NCBI GenBank assembly: GCA_903882665.1
Contig: CAIRXW010000038.1
Location: 47,686-111,685, forward strand
DNA from: an uncultured Chlorobiaceae bacterium
GTDB lineage: Bacteria; Bacteroidota; Chlorobiia; Chlorobiales; Chlorobiaceae
Reading direction: 5' to 3'
Length of the DNA: 64,000 nucleotides
Shown here piece after piece: positions 21,436 to 32,089 of the stretch. The stretch's first letter is position 1, and each line of letters opens with the position of its first letter. The translations under genes and the position numbers were made by a program. The notes beneath the pieces were generated by a model. That model saw only the letters and a list, made by a program, of their open reading frames with translations. It ran no database searches and was not told where the DNA came from.

Positions 21436-23268
21436 CTACTTTTTTTCTGGTACTTCGCGCTCTTCCTTGACGGCATAGTTGATCAGATAGTCGTAGAGCC
21501 TGATAAGGCGCGAATTCTGATTGTTCTGATCGATCCAGTGACCAATCATACCGATGGTACGAGCCAGAACGAAGAAGCCGTTGAGTGAGTATTCCGGGAA
21601 GTCAAGATCCACAAGAATGCAGCCGATGGTGCCGTCTACGTTCAGGATGAGGTTATCCTTCTTGGCTGTGGTAATCTTTTCGACCTGAAGTGCATAGTCG
21701 AGGCAAGGGGTATGCAGCGTCGTCTGCTTTGTAACGTATTCAACCAGATATTTTACCCGTTTATCCGGATTTTTGACGCTCTTCACCCTGTGGCCGATGC
21801 CCGGAACCGGACCGACATTCTGCTTCATCCAGTTCAGAAATCCCGGGATATCATTCGGATACTCCTTGACGCCGTACTTGAAATATTTTCCGGCATTGGT
21901 AACTGCGCCGCCGAATCTTGGCCCGATCATGGTCATGCCTGCAGAGACCGCCTGTGGCAGGTCGATTCCTGCACATGCGGCAATAATGGCGCCGAATGCG
22001 CCGGAAACTGCCGGGCCGTGGTCGGCTGAAATCATGATAATGCGTTTGATGATTTCAGACTCTTCTTTTGATGGAAGTTTTTTGTTCCACAAAAGACCGA
22101 TAACGTCCTCGATGCCATATCCTTTCTCGCACAGTTCTGATGCGGCATAGCCAACGTAACGGGGCTCTTCTCCACGGTCGTCAGAAATGGTGGTACGAAT
22201 AAGGGGTTCGACAATGACGTCGCCCTGCTTCATGACCTCCTGAACACTCGGAGGAAGTGCTGGAAGGAGTGCCTCCTCAAGTTCTGCTTCCGGTTTTATC
22301 ACGCCACTCTTGAGCAACTCCTGGTAAACTTGCTTGATCGCCTTGCTGAGTCCACCGAAGGTCTCGGGAACAACGGCTCCAGCTTCCCGCAGTGCATTGA
22401 TTTTCGAGCGTGCTGATCCAAGCCCTTTTTTACCCTCTTTTGCACCGGCATGTCCGAATTTCATTCCCTGGGGAAGTACATCCTGGCAGGTTCCACCGAT
22501 TGAAGCGATCACTTTAATGCGTCGTATCTCTTTGCCGAGCCATTCAGCAGCCTCTTCTTCAAGCGTTCCGCCAACCTCTCCGATGATAACGACAGCCTTG
22601 GTGTCTGGATCGTTTTCAAACATATTGAGGTAGGTGACGAAGTCCGTACCTGGATAGGAGTCTCCGCCGATAGCTACGGCCGAAGTGATTCCATTACCAT
22701 TCTGGGCACAGAGCCACATCGCTTCGTTCGAAAGTCCGCCTGACTTGGTGATGACACCAAATGAACCTGGACGGTAAAGGTTACAAAGTTTCAGGTTTTT
22801 AAACTCTCCACCAATAACGCCAAGGCGACACTCTCCTGCCGACATGATACCAATCGAGGATGGTCCGTTGAAAATTTTGCCTTTCTCAATTGCATACTTG
22901 CGCAGTCGTTTGGCATCTTTTTCCGGAACCCCTTCGGTAATCATGGTCACAAGCTTGATCCCTTTTGCATCAAGCGCCTCTTTTGCTGACTGGTATGCAC
23001 GGGATGCGCCGATATAGATAAGCGCGGTATTGATTTGAGGGTTCTCCTCAAGAGCTTTTTCGAGCGAGGAGTAAACAGTAACATTGTTCAGCTCCCCTCC
23101 CCGGTAAATCTCTTTCTGCTGGCCCTCTTCCGGCGGGTAAACAAACGCCTGCACCGTCAGCGACCGGTTAATCAGAAAGTCGAACTGAGCCATCCGCCTT
23201 GCAGCATTCACTCCAGCAATACCGCCAATGATGACCGCTCGTGTATCCTTATTTGCTAAAATACTCAC
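21436..23268 (-). CDS. aclA: ATP-citrate lyase, large subunit (AclA)
   Basis: 610 aa, matching the large subunit of the two-gene ATP-citrate lyase of Chlorobium. The N-terminal part is succinyl-CoA-synthetase-like: the phosphohistidine lies in KFGHAGAKEGKKG near residue 273, preceded by GPSSIGI and KSGGLSNEA. The C-terminal ~230 residues form the citrate-synthase-like domain (SADHGPAVSGAFGA; GIGHRVKSVKNPDKRV near residue 490). With AclB it cleaves citrate to acetyl-CoA and oxaloacetate at the cost of ATP, the key step of the reductive TCA cycle in green sulfur bacteria. It lies 61 bp behind aclB and ends at a strong terminator. Confidence 0.95.
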   Translation of the reverse strand: MSILANKDTRAVIIGGIAGVNAARRMAQFDFLINRSLTVQAFVYPPEEGQQKEIYRGGELNNVTVYSSLEKALEENPQINTALIYIGASRAYQSAKEALDAKGIKLVTMITEGVPEKDAKRLRKYAIEKGKIFNGPSSIGIMSAGECRLGVIGGEFKNLKLCNLYRPGSFGVITKSGGLSNEAMWLCAQNGNGITSAVAIGGDSYPGTDFVTYLNMFENDPDTKAVVIIGEVGGTLEEEAAEWLGKEIRRIKVIASIGGTCQDVLPQGMKFGHAGAKEGKKGLGSARSKINALREAGAVVPETFGGLSKAIKQVYQELLKSGVIKPEAELEEALLPALPPSVQEVMKQGDVIVEPLIRTTISDDRGEEPRYVGYAASELCEKGYGIEDVIGLLWNKKLPSKEESEIIKRIIMISADHGPAVSGAFGAIIAACAGIDLPQAVSAGMTMIGPRFGGAVTNAGKYFKYGVKEYPNDIPGFLNWMKQNVGPVPGIGHRVKSVKNPDKRVKYLVEYVTKQTTLHTPCLDYALQVEKITTAKKDNLILNVDGTIGCILVDLDFPEYSLNGFFVLARTIGMIGHWIDQNNQNSRLIRLYDYLINYAVKEEREVPEKK

Positions 23269-23329
23269 GATTCTTACGGTTTATAAGTTAGAAGTTTCTC
23301 TTTGGGGTTCCTGCGATACCGCCTTGCTG

Positions 23330-24526
23330 TTATGAATTCAGGGCAAGGTCAACAATATCGGTCATAGGCATGCTGCGATCGTAAACATGGATGTCGAATC
23401 CTTCTTCTTGCAGCTTTTTCATTGCGGCAAGTCCCTGGTTTTCATTCGGTCCACCGCGTCTGACCCAAATTTGCACATTTTCAAGATACCCTTTCGATTT
23501 GCTCTCACGGAATCCGTTGATAATGCCGCTGAAGGTCGCCTTGACATCAGTGAAATTGGCTATGGCACCGCCGACAATAATATGTTTGATATGGGGAAGT
23601 CGGCAGATAGTCTCTGTCAGAGCCTCTACTGCCCAGTCCGGAGGATCACCGGAATATTCTGCGTAATTGGCAATGGAACCACCTCTGGCGACCACAGCAT
23701 CAGAATAAAAGACCGAAGCGCCACCGCCAGCCGTAAGCAGTGCAATGTCTCCACCCGGCACTTCAACCAGCTTGACCGATCCCTTGATACGGGCATCGAT
23801 ATCCATGATCTGCTGTTCAGCTTCAGTGTAAGAGCGTCCGATTTCGGAAACCGGTTTAAAATCCCAGTCAGCATGACGGAAGCGAGCGTCCCAATCAATG
23901 TTCATGACAGCATCAAGTGCAGCAAAGCGCATGTCACTCTTGCGTATGACAAGCGGATTGATTTCAATCGACTGTGCGTCTTCATCTTCAAAACAGAGAA
24001 TAAGACGTGATGCAATTTTAGCGACACGCTCAGCGATCTCACCCGTGAAACCAGCTTCATGGGCTGCTTCGGTAATACTTTCAAGAGTCGGCGTTTCATC
24101 AAGAGGAATGAAAAGCCGCTTTACGGTATCCCAGTTCTCTTCGATATCCACACCACCCTTGTTGGAAAGGAGAAGCTCGCTTCCGTCGCGGTTACCGGCA
24201 ATGGATAAATAGTACTCCTCATCATGGTCAAGCATCTCGGCAACAATAACCTGATGAACAACCGATGTACCGATTTCGCGTCCAATCATCTCTTTTGCTG
24301 CGTCATAAGCCTCGTCAAGATTCAGTCCAAGCTTGACCAGTCCGAGCTTGAATCGCCCTCCGATAGCTTCATGAGCTTTCACAACGAGTTTTGATTCTCT
24401 CAACCATTTATTAGCTTCCCCAAGCTGCGCAAGGCGGTCGGGATCCATGATAACAACATAATTTGGCACAGGAATGCCCCATTTGTTGAATAGTTTCATG
24501 GCTGGCCCTTCAAGTATCTTAGCCAT
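23330..24526 (-). CDS. aclB: ATP-citrate lyase, small subunit (AclB)
   Basis: 398 aa, the size of Chlorobium AclB. It is an ATP-grasp protein of the succinyl-CoA synthetase beta type: MAKILEGPAMKLFNKWGIPVPNYV at the N-terminus, VVKAHEAIGGRFKLGLVKLG in the ATP-grasp core, and SIEINPLVIRKSD, then a CoA-ligase-like C-terminal part with GGGASVFYSDAVV and IIVGGAIANFTDVKATFSGI. First gene of aclBA. Divergent from lgt, with a shared 110-bp AT-rich promoter region. This pair is the best single indicator that the window comes from an organism using the reverse TCA cycle. Confidence 0.95.
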   Translation of the reverse strand: MAKILEGPAMKLFNKWGIPVPNYVVIMDPDRLAQLGEANKWLRESKLVVKAHEAIGGRFKLGLVKLGLNLDEAYDAAKEMIGREIGTSVVHQVIVAEMLDHDEEYYLSIAGNRDGSELLLSNKGGVDIEENWDTVKRLFIPLDETPTLESITEAAHEAGFTGEIAERVAKIASRLILCFEDEDAQSIEINPLVIRKSDMRFAALDAVMNIDWDARFRHADWDFKPVSEIGRSYTEAEQQIMDIDARIKGSVKLVEVPGGDIALLTAGGGASVFYSDAVVARGGSIANYAEYSGDPPDWAVEALTETICRLPHIKHIIVGGAIANFTDVKATFSGIINGFRESKSKGYLENVQIWVRRGGPNENQGLAAMKKLQEEGFDIHVYDRSMPMTDIVDLALNS

Positions 24527-24636
24527 ACTATCGGATTTTGTATGTTAATGGGTAGAAACACTGCACAGAAAAGTGCAAGATTTTAAGTTAACTAAATATT
24601 TATTTGTTCCAATAGTTTCACAAATAAACGATCCTT

Positions 24637-25488
24637 ATGAATAATTTTCTGCTTTGGTGGCAGTCGTTGCCCTCACAGATGAATCCTGTGATCTTTTCCG
24701 CCGGTACATTTGCCATTCGCTGGTATGGCATGATGTATGTCATTGCCTTCGGAGTCGTCTATCTGCTGAGCCGTTATCGCATCGAGAGTGAAAAGCTTCC
24801 TTTTGAGCGCTCCTTTGTCGGTGATGGACTGACCTGGGCTATGGTTGGTGTTGTGCTGGGTGGTCGTCTGGGCTATATCCTTTTCTATGGATTAGGCTCT
24901 TTTCTTGCCGATCCTCTCGGCACGCTTATACCCTTTGTCTTTTCTCCGGGAGGATGTCGTTTTTCCGGCATTACCGGTATGTCCTATCATGGAGGGGTTA
25001 TCGGAGTCATTCTCGCACTTTTGCTCTTTACCCGCTCGCAGAAAAGAGGGTTTTTTGAAACATTTGACCTTTATATCCCGGCCATACCTCTTGGCTATAC
25101 CTTCGGTCGTCTTGGCAACTTCATCAACGGCGAACTCTATGGACGGGTGACCGATTCGGCATTCGGCATGTATTTCCCGCTTGCTCCTGCCTGGCAACTT
25201 CGCCATCCTTCTCAGCTTTATGAAGCATTTTTCGAAGGGATTGTGCTTTTTGTTGTCTTATGGTTCCTGCGTAAAAAATCCCCGTTTCCGGGGTTTCTCT
25301 CAGCAGTCTACCTCTTCGGTTACGGATTTGTCCGCTTTTTTATTGAATACGTGCGTGAACCTGATGCCCAGCTCGGCTTTGTCTTCCTGAATTTTTCGAT
25401 GGGTCAGGTGCTCTGTTTCATCATGATGATTGCTGGTGTGGCGGTGTTTCTCTTCAACAAGCCTTCGGCCCGCTCAACGGGAATGTAG
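24637..25488 (+). CDS. lgt: Prolipoprotein diacylglyceryl transferase
   Basis: 283 aa integral membrane enzyme with about seven helices. It shows the Lgt signature: IRWYGMMYVIAF at the start, VLGGRLGYILFY, MSYHGGVIGV, then GRLGNFINGELYG with the conserved Arg/Asn, and RHPSQLYEAFFEG. It transfers diacylglycerol from phosphatidylglycerol to the Cys of lipoprotein signal peptides, and so serves the lipobox proteins found here (phosphate-binding-like and BMP-type). Single gene; the next gene converges on it. Confidence 0.94.
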   Translation: MNNFLLWWQSLPSQMNPVIFSAGTFAIRWYGMMYVIAFGVVYLLSRYRIESEKLPFERSFVGDGLTWAMVGVVLGGRLGYILFYGLGSFLADPLGTLIPFVFSPGGCRFSGITGMSYHGGVIGVILALLLFTRSQKRGFFETFDLYIPAIPLGYTFGRLGNFINGELYGRVTDSAFGMYFPLAPAWQLRHPSQLYEAFFEGIVLFVVLWFLRKKSPFPGFLSAVYLFGYGFVRFFIEYVREPDAQLGFVFLNFSMGQVLCFIMMIAGVAVFLFNKPSARSTGM

Positions 25489-25521
25489 GAGTACCTCTTC
25501 CCCGCTGACGAAAAATCGGGG

Positions 25522-26163
25522 TCAGGCTTTTGGTTTCCGCAGAAAGATGTACCCCGTGAGGGCAATGAGCGCAGCAGCAACTCCCCAGATAAATAGCGCA
25601 AACCCCGATCCGCCCTCGTACATGCTGAAAATTCCGAAGAGAAAAAAGATGACCGCGGCCCCGATTTTTATGATGTTTTCAGGGAGTCGCGCTCCGAGCA
25701 TTTTTCCTGCAATAATTGCCAGCCCATCCGAAATCACCATTCCGATGGTTGAGCCGAGCCAGACCGGCAGAAAGGGATGTGTTGAAGCAAGGGTGATGGT
25801 GGAGAGCATGGTTTTGTCGCCAAGCTCAGCCATGAAGAAAGTTGAAAAGACCAGCCAGAAGGGGTTTATGCCGGTTTTGCAACTTTTTTCGTCGTCATCA
25901 AGCGTGTCTCCGCGAAGTGTCCAGAAACCGAAAGCAATAAAGGCAATACCGGCCACGAATTTGATCCACTCTGTCGGCAGTTTGTCGCCGATAAACCATC
26001 CAATGCCTGCCGAAAAAACGTGAATGGCAAGCGTTGCCCAGAAAATCCCCCATAATACAACGCTGGTATTGTAACAGGTTGCAAGCGTCAGGGCTACAAG
26101 CTGGGTTTTATCTCCAAGTTCAGCCAGAAAAATCATGACCAGCGATAGCCAGAATGCGTCCAT
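25522..26163 (-). CDS. Gdt1/TMEM165-family (UPF0016) membrane cation transporter
   Basis: 213 aa with six predicted membrane helices in two homologous halves, each carrying the family motif: [17 protein letters not shown] in the first and [19 protein letters not shown] in the second. The halves are separated by an acidic cytoplasmic loop ([13 protein letters not shown]). Members export Mn2+ or exchange Ca2+/H+ in bacteria, plants and yeast. In cyanobacteria close relatives supply or remove Mn2+ for photosynthesis; what it moves here is not visible from sequence. Monocistronic, convergent with lgt. Confidence 0.9.
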
Positions 26164-26419
26164 TGATGAGTGGGGTTAGAGGTAGAAAATGAAACAACAA
26201 GTATAGGGGAATGGAGCGGGAGGTGCAAGCAGAAAAAAACAGAGCCAATGCGTTACTGAAATAAACGCAAAAAGACTCACGTTACATGAGTCCTTCTGCG
26301 TCTGGCGGATGCTTGAGCAAAAACCTTCTTTATTGATTATTTCCTGATTTCAAATAAAAGAAGGATTCCCGCATCAAAGTCCATGGCACCACATTTGCGC
26401 ATCATCGGATCAAGATGGC

Positions 26420-26593
26420 TCAGTCTTCAATCTTTTTGTTCAGTGAATCCTCCGCTTCAGCCCAGTCTTCCTTGTCCGCTCCCTGTTGTTTCCCTTTCGC
26501 TTCCCACAAGTGATAGGCTGCAAGTTTGATCTGCTCCTCCCGCTCTTTCTGTGGCAGCGACTGTTCTGCCGTTTTGTTTGATCCGTTTGACAT
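26420..26593 (-). CDS. Small DUF2934 protein
   Basis: 57 aa. The pattern IKLAAYHLWEAKGKQQGADKEDWAEAEDSL is the DUF2934 helix-turn signature (AYxLWE...G....DWxxAE). Starting at the ATG at 26593 is preferred over the TTG nine codons upstream. These proteins are common small cytoplasmic proteins of unknown role, often single genes. A weak hairpin (gactca/tgagtc, 26274-26292) lies about 130 bp downstream. Confidence 0.75.
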   Translation of the reverse strand: MSNGSNKTAEQSLPQKEREEQIKLAAYHLWEAKGKQQGADKEDWAEAEDSLNKKIED

Positions 26594-26949
26594 GGCTTTT
26601 TCGAAATTATGGTTGAACAAAAACTAAAAACAACATTACCTTCAAAAAATAACAATCATTTTTACTTGAAAATTCACAAAAAAAACACGGTTACATTTTT
26701 TTTTCAAGAACTGACTTTTTTTGTTGTCATGACTGCTGTCATGAGCTCGAAAAGGCAGCCAAATGGTTTTCGCAAAAATCAGGGTTTTTCACGCTTCATT
26801 AATCCCCGGACTGATGAAAAGAGGTTTCAGTAACAGAGGAATTCTGCTAAATTAAACGTAGGACGTCCTGTATCAGAGAGTAGATTGTCGCTGCTGCCGT
26901 TTGGTGACATCAACTTTTTTTCGATAAAATAATTGAAAGGAGATTGCTC
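26594..26949. other. Intergenic stretch, no gene seen
   Basis: 356 bp between divergent DUF2934 and Cache genes, rich in T and A runs. It includes the AAGGAG ribosome-binding site of the Cache gene (26937-26942). The 74-codon plus ORF at 26609 is a run of low-complexity codons and is rejected. Confidence 0.5.
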
Positions 26950-27723
26950 ATGGCAAAGATTTTTTCGCTGATTATCTCTGTTATCATTATGATTTCTTTG
27001 TTAACAGTCCGGGCCGAATCAAAATCAGCTTCTCTCAAACTGGATCCCCAAGTCACCCTTGGTACCTATAAGGGGCTGGTTGAAAATCATTTGGGCGGTG
27101 TTTTGCGGACGGCAAGGGTAATTACATTGACTTCAGAAGCACAGTCGGCCAAGTGGCAATCAGTCAAACCCTTGCTTGATCGTTTCAGCAATGACCTTGC
27201 TACCGATGCAACGGTGTGGTTTGTGCTGCCGGATGGCAGTTATTTCTCAACAGAAACCGGAGGAATAAGCGATCAGAATTTGAAGGATCGCAACTATTTC
27301 CCGAAACTCATGTCGGGTCAGGACGTTTTGGGCGACCTGGTGATAAGCAAATCGACCGGTCACCGCTCGATAATTGTTGCCAGTCCAGTGATGGTGAATG
27401 GAAAAGTTGTTGCGGCCGTTGGCGTCTCCGTAAGTGTCCGTTTGCTGTCAGGACTTCTTGAATCGAATACAAAATTGCCGGATAACGCCTATTTCTATGC
27501 CCTCGACTCTGCTACCAGGATCGTTCTGCACAGAAATGTGGATCGCATGTTCAAGAGCGTCAGTGATGTGGGTGACGAGAGCCTTGGGGATGCATTCAAA
27601 ACCATTATGACCAAGGATCAGGGGGGCTTCAACTACACGCTACACGGCAAGAAAATGACGTCGATATTCCAGAAATCAACCCTTTTGGGATGGTATTTCT
27701 TTATTGCACAGGAACGGAAGTGA
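26950..27723 (+). CDS. Periplasmic Cache-domain protein without a signalling partner
   Basis: 257 aa from the ATG at 26950, seven bases after AAGGAG; the TTG two codons earlier is unlikely. An N-terminal signal peptide (IFSLIISVIIMISLLTVRA) is followed by one extracellular dCache-like sensor: TVWFVLPDGSYFSTETGG, LKDRNYFPKLMSGQD, IVASPVMVNGKVVAAVGVSVSV. The RDYF/NYF and PV..NGKVVGVVG blocks are typical of Cache domains that bind small molecules. There is no second membrane helix, HAMP, kinase or methyl-accepting domain, so it is a free-standing sensor or binding protein. Nothing nearby is an obvious partner. Confidence 0.8.
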   Translation: MAKIFSLIISVIIMISLLTVRAESKSASLKLDPQVTLGTYKGLVENHLGGVLRTARVITLTSEAQSAKWQSVKPLLDRFSNDLATDATVWFVLPDGSYFSTETGGISDQNLKDRNYFPKLMSGQDVLGDLVISKSTGHRSIIVASPVMVNGKVVAAVGVSVSVRLLSGLLESNTKLPDNAYFYALDSATRIVLHRNVDRMFKSVSDVGDESLGDAFKTIMTKDQGGFNYTLHGKKMTSIFQKSTLLGWYFFIAQERK

Positions 27724-27830
27724 TCAATTGAACAAGAAAATTTTTGAAATCTCAAGGAATTATCCTGAACTTGCGACCCTGTATGAGCCGTAAGATAGAG
27801 TAACGTATTTTAAAAAAAAGAGAATAAGAT

Positions 27831-28475
27831 GTGCCTATGATACCCGCAACCAGAACAGCTATAGAGCGTGATGTAACGAGATGTGGCGAGCTTCTTGGAA
27901 TTCTTTTCAGCCAGGAGCAGGAGTTTACCGCCGATGCTGAAGCGCAGTCGAGAGCGCTCAACATGATTATTGGCAATCCTGAGCTTGGCCGGATATTTGT
28001 CATCGACATTGATGGAGCAATTCAGGGGATGGTAATGCTCCTTTTTACAGTAAGTACCTTTCTTGGCCGAAAAGTCGCTTTGCTTGAAGATATGGTTGTA
28101 GCACCTGCATGGCGGGGAAAGGGACTCGGCACCCTGCTGATCAATCATGCTGTGGATGTTGCCCACAAGGAGGGATTTGGGCGCATCACGCTCCTCACCG
28201 ACCGCGATAACGAGGCTGCACAGCAATTTTACCGATTACAGGGTTTTGCACAGTCGGAGATGGTGGTTTTCAGAAAGCTTCTTGACGACGGAGCAACTCT
28301 GAACAAGTGTGAATCAGATACATGGATGTGCCGTGAGTGCGGCTACCTCTATGACCCTGCCGAAGGTGATCCTGAAAGCCGGATAAAGGAAGGTACTCCC
28401 TTTGTTGAGGTATCCGGCCAGTGGAGTTGCCCGGTCTGCTTTGCCTCAAAAGCAGATTTCGATCCATTTTCATGA
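27831..28475 (+). CDS. GNAT acetyltransferase fused to rubredoxin
   Basis: 214 aa (GTG at 27831; ATG at 27837 is equally possible). Residues 1-150 are a GNAT fold: RDVTRCGELLGILF, VALLEDMVVAPAWRGKGLGTLLINHA with the acetyl-CoA pyrophosphate loop (RGKGLG), and LTDRDNEAAQQFYRLQGF. After a short linker, residues 165-214 form a complete rubredoxin: WMCRECGYLYDPAEGDP, GTPFVEV, WSCPVCFASKADFDPF, with both Cys pairs that bind one iron. A redox centre on an acetyltransferase is unusual. A decayed second copy of the GNAT part lies at 32117-32206. Confidence 0.88.
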   Translation: MPMIPATRTAIERDVTRCGELLGILFSQEQEFTADAEAQSRALNMIIGNPELGRIFVIDIDGAIQGMVMLLFTVSTFLGRKVALLEDMVVAPAWRGKGLGTLLINHAVDVAHKEGFGRITLLTDRDNEAAQQFYRLQGFAQSEMVVFRKLLDDGATLNKCESDTWMCRECGYLYDPAEGDPESRIKEGTPFVEVSGQWSCPVCFASKADFDPFS

Positions 28476-28575: not shown

Positions 28576-29727
28576 TCAAACGAAAGAAAACCTTTTTTCT
28601 TCAAAAAGCCTTACGCAAGCATCCACGACAGTTGGATCATAAAGAGTTCCACGGCCTTGCCTGATTTCTGCTAATGCGGCATCAATGCCAAGCTCTGAGC
28701 GATAAGGGCGACGCGATGCCATAGCTTCAATAACGTCTGCCACCGCAATAATTCTTGATCCAGGCAAAATTTCTTCACCCTTGAGTCCCTGCGGATATCC
28801 GCTTCCATCAATCCTCTCGTGATGCTGCAAGATAAAAAGAGCAATTGGCCATGGAAATTTAATATTTTTGACAATGTCATAACCAGCCTCGGCATGGGTT
28901 TGAATCAACAGATATTCGATCTTGCTGAGCTTTGCCGGCTTCGTCAGAATTTCAACAGGAATACTGATTTTCCCTACATCATGAATAGTTGAGGCCAGCT
29001 CAATACCATGGATAGTCTCTTCCGATAAACCCAGCTCCCTTGCAATCGCTGGCGCCAATTGCCCGACACGACGCATGTGGCCAGCAGTATATTCATCACG
29101 GGATTCAACGGTATTGGCTATCGCTTTGATTGACTCTTCCAGGCTCTCCTGCAGTTCATGAGATGCTTGTACAACAGCCAGTGCCATTTTTTTGGCAGCT
29201 ACAATCTCCTCGATCTGCTTAACTTCGGTAAGGTCAGTAGCTACCAGACAAATAATATCAGCCTCTTTACCAACATGAACTTTACCAATCGAAATATAAA
29301 TAGGTACCCGGTCTCCATCTTTAGTCACTAAAATCAATTCACCGCGATGTTTTGCGGTAGAATCCATGCTCAGGAGTGATTCCAGAATCTTTCGATGTTC
29401 AGGCTCAACCCAGGTTTGAAAGTTTCCACCAATAACCTTGTTCAAGGGAGAGTTCACCATCCGGGCAAACCGCTTGTTGGCGAATAAAACAAGGCCATCA
29501 GGCGTCAGGGTCAGGGCGCCTTCACTCATCTCCTCAAGCAATATCCGATAGGGTTGATCAGCATTGGACAGAGAATAAATATGCTCACCCGATGTACCGG
29601 ATACCACAAAAGCATCAACAGCACCCTCGCGAATGGCATTCAGGGTTGCATGGGCTTCCTGCAATGCAGTGCGCAATTCTTCTACTTCCCGGGAGAGCTC
29701 TGCTTTGGATTTCAATGCTGCTTTCAT
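28576..29727 (-). CDS. PAS plus HD-GYP cyclic-di-GMP phosphodiesterase, last gene of the kai operon
   Basis: 383 aa. An N-terminal coiled coil (SKAELSREVEELRTALQEAH) and a PAS domain (about residues 60-180) precede an HD-GYP domain with an intact metal and catalytic set: ESRDEYTAGHMRRV, STIHDVGKISIP, THAEAGYDI, HHERIDGSGYPQGL (the GYP motif) and AVADVIEAMASRRPY. It should hydrolyse c-di-GMP. It begins two bases after kaiB, so it is co-transcribed with kaiC and kaiB and probably is the output of that module. No regulatory histidine kinase is in the operon. Confidence 0.92.
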   Translation of the reverse strand: MKAALKSKAELSREVEELRTALQEAHATLNAIREGAVDAFVVSGTSGEHIYSLSNADQPYRILLEEMSEGALTLTPDGLVLFANKRFARMVNSPLNKVIGGNFQTWVEPEHRKILESLLSMDSTAKHRGELILVTKDGDRVPIYISIGKVHVGKEADIICLVATDLTEVKQIEEIVAAKKMALAVVQASHELQESLEESIKAIANTVESRDEYTAGHMRRVGQLAPAIARELGLSEETIHGIELASTIHDVGKISIPVEILTKPAKLSKIEYLLIQTHAEAGYDIVKNIKFPWPIALFILQHHERIDGSGYPQGLKGEEILPGSRIIAVADVIEAMASRRPYRSELGIDAALAEIRQGRGTLYDPTVVDACVRLFEEKRFSFV

Positions 29728-29729
29728 CG

Positions 29730-30065
29730 TTATAAAGGTTTCAAATCCAAACCGACAAGTACCTTCTCGGTATCTGACAGGTCGCCAATAATACGGCGAA
29801 GAGGAGGTGGAAGCTCTCTAATGAGTGTCGGTATGGCAATGATCTGATCCCCGGCAGCGAGATGGGGCTGCTGATATAAATCAATCACCTCCAGAACGTA
29901 CCGCCCATCCAGTTTTTCTTCGCAAATCTTCTTGATATTTGCAATGGCGGTCATCGAATGTATCGTTGATCCGGCCACATACAACCGCAAAATCCATTTT
30001 TTTGATGGATCGTCTTCAGGTCCTGTTTTTTTATGAACTCTTAAATCAATCGGTTTATCACTCAT
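29730..30065 (-). CDS. kaiB: KaiB, clock-like protein
   Basis: 111 aa; KaiB core with the thioredoxin-like start [29 protein letters not shown], then [45 protein letters not shown], the conserved strand-helix region that switches fold in cyanobacterial KaiB. About 20 extra residues precede the usual start. In cyanobacteria KaiB binds KaiC and sets clock phase. The operon has no kaiA, so any rhythm would be of the KaiA-free type reported for other phototrophs. It follows kaiC after a 37-bp gap. Confidence 0.93.
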
Positions 30066-30102
30066 TTGCCACCCCTTGGGGTTACGTCGATTATAGCCCC
30101 TT

Positions 30103-31863
30103 TCATGTTGATTTCCTTTTGACTTTTACATGCGTATTGTTTTCATCAACGTTACGTATTTTGCCCATTGCAGTTCGATCTGTGCTTAGTTGCGCTTGAC
30201 GGGTTTTTTCCTGTGCTATCATTTTGAGATTGCTGGCTTCCTGGGCTGCGAATTCAGCTCGCATGGCCGCGATCCTCGAATCTAAAATACTCCGCTTGTT
30301 TTCCAGATCAAATTGCCGAAGTTCTATCTCTTCCTGTAATTTGAGACCTAATGCCTTTTCCTGAGCCAGCATATTCAGGCGTGCTCCACCTGTTGCAACC
30401 CCACCTGTGCCGATATAAACATCACATATTTCTATGCCGTGATCTGTCATCAAAAATTCCCGAACCTGGTTGGAGTGGCTCATGCCGCGTGACTTGAGAA
30501 CATAGATAGCACGACTTCGCTCCCCATTACTTTCAAGATCCCTCAATAAAATCCATGAATCAATGATTGATGATATATTAATTGAGGAACTCTCTGATTG
30601 CACTTCACTCGGCGTCAAGCTGCCAAACACGATAGTGATGCCAAGAGATTTCATAAGGTCAACAAACTTCATTACAATTCTTTTGACATCACTGGTGTTT
30701 GCAATATCATCAAAGCTTGTAACAGGATCCATGATGACAACTTTGGGGGTGTACTCGGCGATCAGTTTTTGAGCCAGAAGCAAATGCATATCAAGACCAT
30801 ACTGGGTAATCCGCCTGCATTCCATGACCAGAAGACCTTTTTTTACCCAATGGTCGAGGTTTAACCCAACGGAGCGCATATTTCTTATGATTTGATCCGA
30901 CGACTCCTCGAAGGAAAAATAGACAACGCGCTCATTGCGCCGACAGGCTGCATCCGCAAAATGTGCCAAAAAGGTGGTCTTACCCGTGCCGGGCGAACCG
31001 GAAATCATAATGACGCTGTCCTCAAAGAACCCGTTGCCTCCAAGCATAGCGTCTAACCTTTGAATGCCGCTGGAAACTCTCGTATATGAGACCTTGTGCT
31101 CCAGCCTTGCAGAAGTAACCGGTATGAGAGAAATGCCATCTCCGTCAATGACGAAAGGATAATCGTTGCTGCCGTGAGATGAACCACGATACTTCACAAT
31201 ACGTAATCTTCGTGAAGCAACCCGTTCCTCAATGCTGACAGTTACATTAATCACACAGTCTGAAACGTACTCTTCTATACCGTGACGGGAAAGGGTATCG
31301 GTGCCGCCTTCTCCGGTAATGACCGCAGTAACACCCTTCTCCTTGAGCCAACGAAACAGACGGCGCAATTCAGCGCGCAAAACGGCTGGATTGGGCAGGT
31401 TGCTGAAGAGTGATTCAATGGTATCAAGGACGACTCGTTTGGCGCCAATGGAATCAATGGCGGCACCCAATCGAATAAACAGGGCATCGAGGTTGTACTC
31501 TCCTGCCTCAACTATTTCATATTGATCGATATAAACAAAATCGACAACAATCTTTTTGCTTGCAATCAACCCATCCAGGTCAAAGCCGATCGAGACGACA
31601 TTGGTGATTAAATCGTTTGTCGATTCTTCAAAGGCCATGAAGACGCCAGGCTCATTATATTGCATGGCACCTCTGAGCAAAAACTCCATGGCGAGCAGTG
31701 TTTTTCCGGTACCTGTTCCTCCGCAAATGAGTGTGGCTCGACCCTTCGGCAGCCCACCATTGGTAATGATGTCTAACCCTTCAATCCCAGTTAACGCCTT
31801 GGGAAGTTGCCGCCTGTTTTCAGGCATCGACTTCGGTTTCAGATTTATTTTCGCTTTTGTCAT
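30103..31863 (-). CDS. kaiC: KaiC, two-domain clock ATPase
   Basis: 586 aa from the ATG at 31863 (AAAGGAA upstream); the longer ORF in the track extends over other sequence. Two RecA-like domains: CI with Walker A GGTGTGKT at residues 48-55 and the catalytic FEESTND, and CII with GSPGTGKT near residue 290 and FEESSDQ. The autophosphorylation site of cyanobacterial CII (Ser431/Thr432 in HISTITD) corresponds to NISSIID here, two serines. The C-terminus is longer than in cyanobacteria and forms a coiled coil ([24 protein letters not shown]). First gene of kaiC-kaiB-HD-GYP. Confidence 0.93.
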
Positions 31864-32089
31864 AATGTATTCCTTTCGTAATTTCAATTGACCAGGATGC
31901 GGTAACACGTTCTTGACAGGCGCATGAGTATGATCGGCGTAGCGCCTCAGACACTTTTTGGTCTGATCCCTCGATAGAAAAAGTTGTTGTTTCGGAAGTA
32001 TCATCTGCAGGATCAATGTTTTTTTTCACAGGTATTTTTTTGGCAACACTTGTTTTGCTTATGCACGTATAACGGAACAAATAGTTCAT
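31820..32089 (-). CDS. Possible small protein overlapping the kaiC start
   Basis: 89 aa if started at the ATG at 32089. The sequence (NYLFRYTCISKTSVAKKIPVKK, then FSIEGSDQKVSEALRRSYSCACQERVTASWSIEITKG) has a plausible helix-rich composition but no family I know. It overlaps the first 14 codons of kaiC in another frame and ends shortly after. It could be a short leader gene of the kai operon, or simply chance. Low confidence; codon use is not diagnostic. Confidence 0.35.
   Translation of the reverse strand: MNYLFRYTCISKTSVAKKIPVKKNIDPADDTSETTTFSIEGSDQKVSEALRRSYSCACQERVTASWSIEITKGIHYDKSENKSETEVDA

What the first reader, a model, noticed from the sequence alone, without database searches (positions are those of the whole stretch)
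27831..28475. Acetyltransferase-rubredoxin fusion
A complete GNAT domain with RGKGLG is followed by a complete rubredoxin with four iron-binding cysteines. An electron carrier tied to an acyl transfer enzyme may make acetylation respond to redox state, an attractive idea in a strict anaerobe with high sulfide.
Basis: partly seen in the sequence, partly recalled or inferred. Interest (0 to 1): 0.55.

Follow-up and report, generated by a model that had tools for sequence, protein, structure and literature searches.

The report
Green-sulfur-bacterial acetyltransferase fused to rubredoxin
Green sulfur bacteria carry a small acetyl-transferring enzyme that in most species is paired with, and several times in evolution has been fused to, its own modified iron protein (rubredoxin); the pairing is real and undescribed in the papers searched, but what the iron protein does for the enzyme is still unknown.

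Summary
ORF 27837-28475 (+; ATG two codons inside the GTG proposed) is a GNAT acetyltransferase joined by a short variable linker to a four-cysteine rubredoxin. The host is a green sulfur bacterium. Across 86 Chlorobiaceae genomes the GNAT occurs in 83 (84 loci): 19 fused, 34 with a separate rubredoxin gene immediately downstream, 31 without. Fusion arose at least three times by the simplest reading. The linked rubredoxins form one clade, and 53 of 53 lack the glycine after the second CxxC that all 35 other family rubredoxins examined keep. No linked-type rubredoxin turned up without the GNAT. Both domains are under purifying selection. By profile and fold the GNAT is closest to polyamine acetyltransferases (Dpa, SSAT), with the acidic pair and catalytic tyrosine invariant; the host encodes a decarboxylase and homospermidine synthase. 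So the rubredoxin looks like a dedicated accessory of a small-amine acetyltransferase. Redox control is possible but unproven, and the enzyme is kept without rubredoxin in over a third of loci. Known parts, new pairing.

The parts
27837..28475 (+).
27837..28286 (+). GNAT acetyltransferase domain, residues 1-150, Dpa/SSAT-like
   Evidence: Pfam; PDB profile; Foldseek
27882..27884 (+). Cys16, invariant in 84/84 Chlorobiaceae GNATs, absent from the two gammaproteobacterial relatives
28086..28091 (+). Glu84-Asp85, invariant acidic pair, aligned with Dpa D80-D81 at the amine site
28095..28130 (+). Acetyl-CoA motif A, VVAPAWRGKGLG
28230..28232 (+). Tyr132, invariant; aligned with the catalytic Tyr128 of Dpa
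28287..28322 (+). Linker, residues 151-162; disordered in the model (152-159 pLDDT under 50), dN/dS 0.55
28323..28472 (+). Rubredoxin domain, residues 163-212, CxxCG...CPVCF; dN/dS 0.07
28440..28442 (+). Phe202 in place of the usual Gly after the second CPxC; non-Gly in 53/53 GNAT-linked rubredoxins, Gly in 35/35 others

Best explanation
The gene encodes a small-amine (probably polyamine-type) N-acetyltransferase of the Dpa/SSAT kind carrying its own dedicated rubredoxin on a flexible tail. Shown by sequence: both domains intact, the rubredoxin lineage specific to this GNAT, the pair conserved across the family, fused repeatedly, both under purifying selection. Inferred: it acetylates putrescine, homospermidine or a similar amine with acetyl-CoA. 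Inferred: like Dpa and SSAT it dimerises by swapping its last strand, so that the rubredoxin, attached just after that strand, sits near the dimer interface and substrate channel. Inferred, the weakest step: the Fe(Cys)4 centre acts as an accessory input, its redox state or its docking on a redox partner tuning acetyltransferase activity or location rather than taking part in the chemistry, which needs no electrons.
For: GNAT and rubredoxin both over cut-off. Three states in 84 loci: 19 fused, 34 adjacent with the rubredoxin domain starting at most 80 bp past the GNAT stop, same strand, and 31 alone. Separate fusions in two genera. Linked rubredoxins are one clade (SH-aLRT 99) with a shared knuckle-2 Gly loss. 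Lone-GNAT genomes carry only the ordinary rubredoxin (some also a rubredoxin-glutamate synthase fusion), so the linked type was never seen without the GNAT. dN/dS 0.14, 0.55 and 0.07 for GNAT, linker and rubredoxin. Closest structure is the 1,3-diaminopropane acetyltransferase Dpa (profile E 4e-15, Foldseek TM 0.88 by target length); E84, D85 and Y132, invariant in 84/84, match D80, D81 and Y128 of Dpa (PMC10267138). The genome has homospermidine synthase next to an ornithine/lysine-decarboxylase-like gene.
Against: Over a third of loci keep the GNAT without the rubredoxin, so it is dispensable. Fusion between genes tens of bases apart needs little more than loss of a stop, so recurrence is weak evidence for coupling. 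No redox partner gene is conserved beside the pair. Dpa E116 is not conserved (Leu120 by alignment), so the amine substrate is unsure. The domain orientation is not determined (pTM 0.66), and the model is of a monomer.
Confidence: 0.4

Rival explanations
1. Co-expression only: GNAT and rubredoxin are two independent stress or housekeeping proteins in one transcript. Fusions are near-neutral stop-loss events, and both domains work separately on one chain.
For: Genes lie at most 80 bp apart or overlap. In L231 (G228), sister to two fused genomes, a single in-frame TGA separates the two parts. The GNAT persists alone in 31 loci. The linker is variable and disordered. The host has a flavodiiron protein and a rubrerythrin, typical users of rubredoxin.
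Against: The linked rubredoxin is a distinct clade with its own altered knuckle and was not found without the GNAT; an unrelated passenger should sometimes part from it. It coexists with an ordinary rubredoxin elsewhere in the genomes.
Confidence: 0.3
2. Structural or docking module: the rubredoxin fold, with Fe or Zn, is a rigid knob that stabilises the dimer or recruits the enzyme to a partner, with no electron transfer. The lost knuckle-2 glycine marks relaxed redox tuning.
For: The Gly after the second CxxC is lost in 53/53 while the four cysteines are kept. Rubredoxin-like domains occur in large non-redox proteins (LapB, own knowledge). The model places it on a flexible tether.
Against: The sequence is otherwise that of an electron-transfer rubredoxin (best PDB hits are rubredoxins), and the GNAT persists without it, so stability does not require it.
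Confidence: 0.2
3. Targeting of a protein acetylase: the GNAT acetylates a protein partner of rubredoxin (for example a reductase or oxidoreductase), and the rubredoxin domain brings it there.
For: The linkage itself; some GNATs are protein acetylases (own knowledge).
Against: The GNAT is nearest to small-amine acetyltransferases and survives without the rubredoxin.
Confidence: 0.08

Closest known systems
Dpa, 1,3-diaminopropane acetyltransferase of Acinetobacter baumannii (PDB 8a9n, 8a9o; PMC10267138), and SSAT1/SSAT2
   Same: GNAT fold (TM 0.88 by target length), adjacent acidic pair before motif A, catalytic Tyr, similar length
   Different: Only about 26% identity; Dpa E116 and tyrosines Y21/Y25 not conserved; no rubredoxin in Dpa; substrate untested here
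   Same: Same GNAT followed by the same Gly-less rubredoxin
   Different: Separate genes, not fused; followed by a second, ordinary rubredoxin
Known rubredoxin fusions: rubrerythrin, flavorubredoxin, flavodiiron-rubredoxin proteins, BCR of Fusobacterium nucleatum (PMC12288474, PMC9364112)
   Same: A rubredoxin domain on the same chain as an enzyme
   Different: In those the partner is a redox enzyme that exchanges electrons with the rubredoxin; a GNAT reaction needs none
Ada-GNAT fusion of Sulfuricurvum kujiense (L232:1336-2616)
   Same: A GNAT about 45% identical to this one, at the C-terminus of a multidomain protein
   Different: Fused to an AraC-type HTH and O6-methylguanine DNA methyltransferase, not to rubredoxin

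Membership tests
GNAT superfamily | GNAT fold and acetyl-CoA motif A (Q/RxxGxG/A) | tested here: met
   PF00583 E 1.9e-19; Foldseek TM 0.88 to Dpa by target length; motif VVAPAWRGKGLG
Rubredoxin (PF00301) | Two CxxC knuckles and domain over the curated cut-off | tested here: met
   58.7 bits against cut-off 23; four Cys kept in 53/53 linked copies
Rubredoxin (PF00301) | Gly after each CxxC knuckle | tested here: not met
   First Gly kept; second is F here and N/F/Y/S/D/H in all 53 linked copies. Lowers the claim of a canonical rubredoxin, not of a rubredoxin fold
Rubredoxin (PF00301) | Binds iron and cycles Fe(III)/Fe(II) | not testable with these tools
   Needs purified protein
Dpa/SSAT polyamine acetyltransferases | Acidic pair and catalytic Tyr | tested here: met
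   E84, D85, Y132 in 84/84, aligned with D80, D81, Y128
Dpa/SSAT polyamine acetyltransferases | Rest of the amine pocket (Dpa Y21, Y25, E116) | tested here: not met
   Aligned with E27, T31 and L120 by the profile alignment
Dpa/SSAT polyamine acetyltransferases | Strand-swapped dimer | tested here: inconclusive
   Monomer model only; last GNAT strand not formed, pLDDT 69 in block 141-150
Dpa/SSAT polyamine acetyltransferases | Acetylates polyamines | not testable with these tools
   Needs enzyme assay

The most novel reading that the evidence does not exclude
A redox-gated acetyltransferase. The modified rubredoxin couples the acetylation of a small amine to electron flow, for example by docking on pyruvate:ferredoxin oxidoreductase, which makes acetyl-CoA and is reported to reduce rubredoxin in Chlorobium tepidum (title of PMID 10514453, cited in PMC3772215), so that acetyl-CoA supply and redox state are read together.
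Probability: 0.12. Interest if true: 0.75.

Novelty: new variant of a known kind. Interest (0 to 1): 0.42.

Why it matters
Rubredoxin normally serves redox enzymes. A whole bacterial family pairing a dedicated, altered rubredoxin with an acetyltransferase, and fusing them more than once, points to an unrecognised link between redox state and acetylation that can be tested with one purified protein and, in a cultured relative, one gene knockout.

Tried and rejected
Assembly artefact: rejected, the same frame is intact in many independent genomes. Recent one-off fusion: rejected. Clue from the operon: none; the pair stands alone between GDT1, lipocalin or lgt-type genes upstream and convergent FtsX-type permeases downstream. 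A weak hit in G042 was a plain GNAT. Spermidine synthase: absent; a homospermidine synthase is present instead. Literature: no paper in the library describes this pairing.

Full report
Observation. The open frame at 27831-28475 (+) holds a GNAT domain and a full rubredoxin domain without a stop between them. Relatives align at the ATG at 27837, so I number from there: GNAT 1-150, linker 151-162, rubredoxin 163-212. The window belongs to a green sulfur bacterium: ATP-citrate-lyase-type genes lie at 21436-24526 (identification from the sequence and own knowledge), and nearly all close relatives are labelled Chlorobiaceae or Chlorobium.

Distribution. In 86 genomes of the family the GNAT is found in 83, with 84 loci: 19 fused, 34 with a separate rubredoxin gene right behind it on the same strand (rubredoxin domain from 10 bp before to 80 bp after the GNAT stop), and 31 without. 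In genus g19 all 21 genomes have the pair; 13 of their adjacent loci and one fused locus carry a second, ordinary rubredoxin in tandem. G137 has 2,154,946 bases in one contig, which from memory is the length of the Chlorobaculum tepidum TLS genome.

History. On an aclB tree of 70 loci (quick search) the label fused/not changes at least 6 times and rubredoxin present/absent at least 6 times; on the GNAT tree 7 and 8. Fused pairs G180/G215 and G101/G224 lie in separate parts of g19, and the g1 fusions in another genus, so at least three fusion origins are the simplest reading if the pair was ancestrally separate; a fused ancestor with repeated splitting is not formally excluded. Three lone GNATs (G021, G238, G244) are nested in the window's fused clade, so the rubredoxin can be dropped. 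In L231 (G228) a single in-frame TGA separates GNAT and rubredoxin.

A dedicated rubredoxin. The 53 linked rubredoxins form one clade (SH-aLRT 99; short sequences, so treat with care) apart from 14 second tandem copies and 21 stand-alone copies. All 53 lack the glycine after the second CxxC (N 19, F 14, Y 10, S 7, D 2, H 1) and all 35 others have it; in five linked copies an extra upstream Cys shifted the automatic reading of the first knuckle, whose Gly is in fact present in the printed sequences. Lone-GNAT genomes hold one ordinary rubredoxin, in some cases plus a rubredoxin-glutamate synthase fusion. The GNAT thus occurs without the linked rubredoxin, but the reverse was not seen. Own knowledge: this glycine supports NH-S hydrogen bonds at the iron site, so its loss should shift the potential; not tested.

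Selection. Among nine fused relatives the median pairwise dN/dS is 0.14 for the GNAT, 0.55 for the linker and 0.07 for the rubredoxin. The rubredoxin is the most constrained part.

What the GNAT is. Profile search against solved structures gives Dpa polyamine acetyltransferase first (E 4e-15), with thialysine, diamine and ornithine acetyltransferases and SSAT in the list. Foldseek with the AlphaFold2 model (pLDDT 84, pTM 0.66) also puts Dpa first (TM 0.88 by target length, 26% identity). The acidic pair E84-D85 and Y132 are invariant in 84/84 and align with D80-D81 and catalytic Y128 of Dpa; Y21, Y25 and E116 of Dpa do not match. The genome has homospermidine synthase (E 1e-107) beside an ornithine/lysine-decarboxylase-like gene and no spermidine synthase, so putrescine and homospermidine are plausible substrates. 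This is inference.

How it may work. In Dpa and SSAT the last strand swaps between subunits and lines the substrate channel (PMC10267138). If the same holds here, the rubredoxin tail leaves the GNAT at that strand and could reach the channel or the dimer interface. The acetyl transfer itself needs no electrons, so I regard the rubredoxin as an accessory input (redox state or docking). Passenger and structural readings remain close rivals.

Comparison and novelty. Rubredoxin fusions to redox enzymes are well known (PMC12288474, PMC9364112). I found no paper on a GNAT partner in the library searches, and no other case among the sampled genomes of the phylum outside Chlorobiaceae or in plasmids. 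Other phyla were not sampled systematically. Hence a new variant of a known kind.

Noticed in passing
window 28576-32016 (-): Next to the fusion lies a PAS/HD-domain gene, a KaiB gene and a KaiC-type gene; neighbour clustering finds the HD gene in 3 and the KaiB gene in 2 of the compared loci, so this is a rare insertion between the GNAT and the FtsX-type permeases.
   Followed up: partly
L229:1681-3288: Some relatives encode two short rubredoxin-like domains followed by a glutamate-synthase-like domain in one frame of about 536 aa, another unusual rubredoxin fusion (second domain named from the sequence, not searched).
   Followed up: partly
L232:1336-2616: Sulfuricurvum kujiense plasmid protein with AraC HTH, O6-methylguanine DNA methyltransferase and a GNAT related to this one in a single chain.
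   Followed up: partly
L227:752-3364: Homospermidine synthase directly followed by an ornithine/lysine decarboxylase-like gene in the host genome.
   Followed up: yes
L024 and L025: A MAG contig titled Klebsiella pneumoniae carries a region nearly identical to one titled Gammaproteobacteria bacterium; the first label looks doubtful.
   Followed up: no
window 26944-27723 (+): A dCache-domain protein of 259 aa with no output domain lies just upstream of the fusion and recurs in 5 of the compared loci.
   Followed up: no
window 21436-28475: The GNAT locus lies within roughly 5-20 kb of aclB in many family genomes, a conserved neighbourhood.
   Followed up: no
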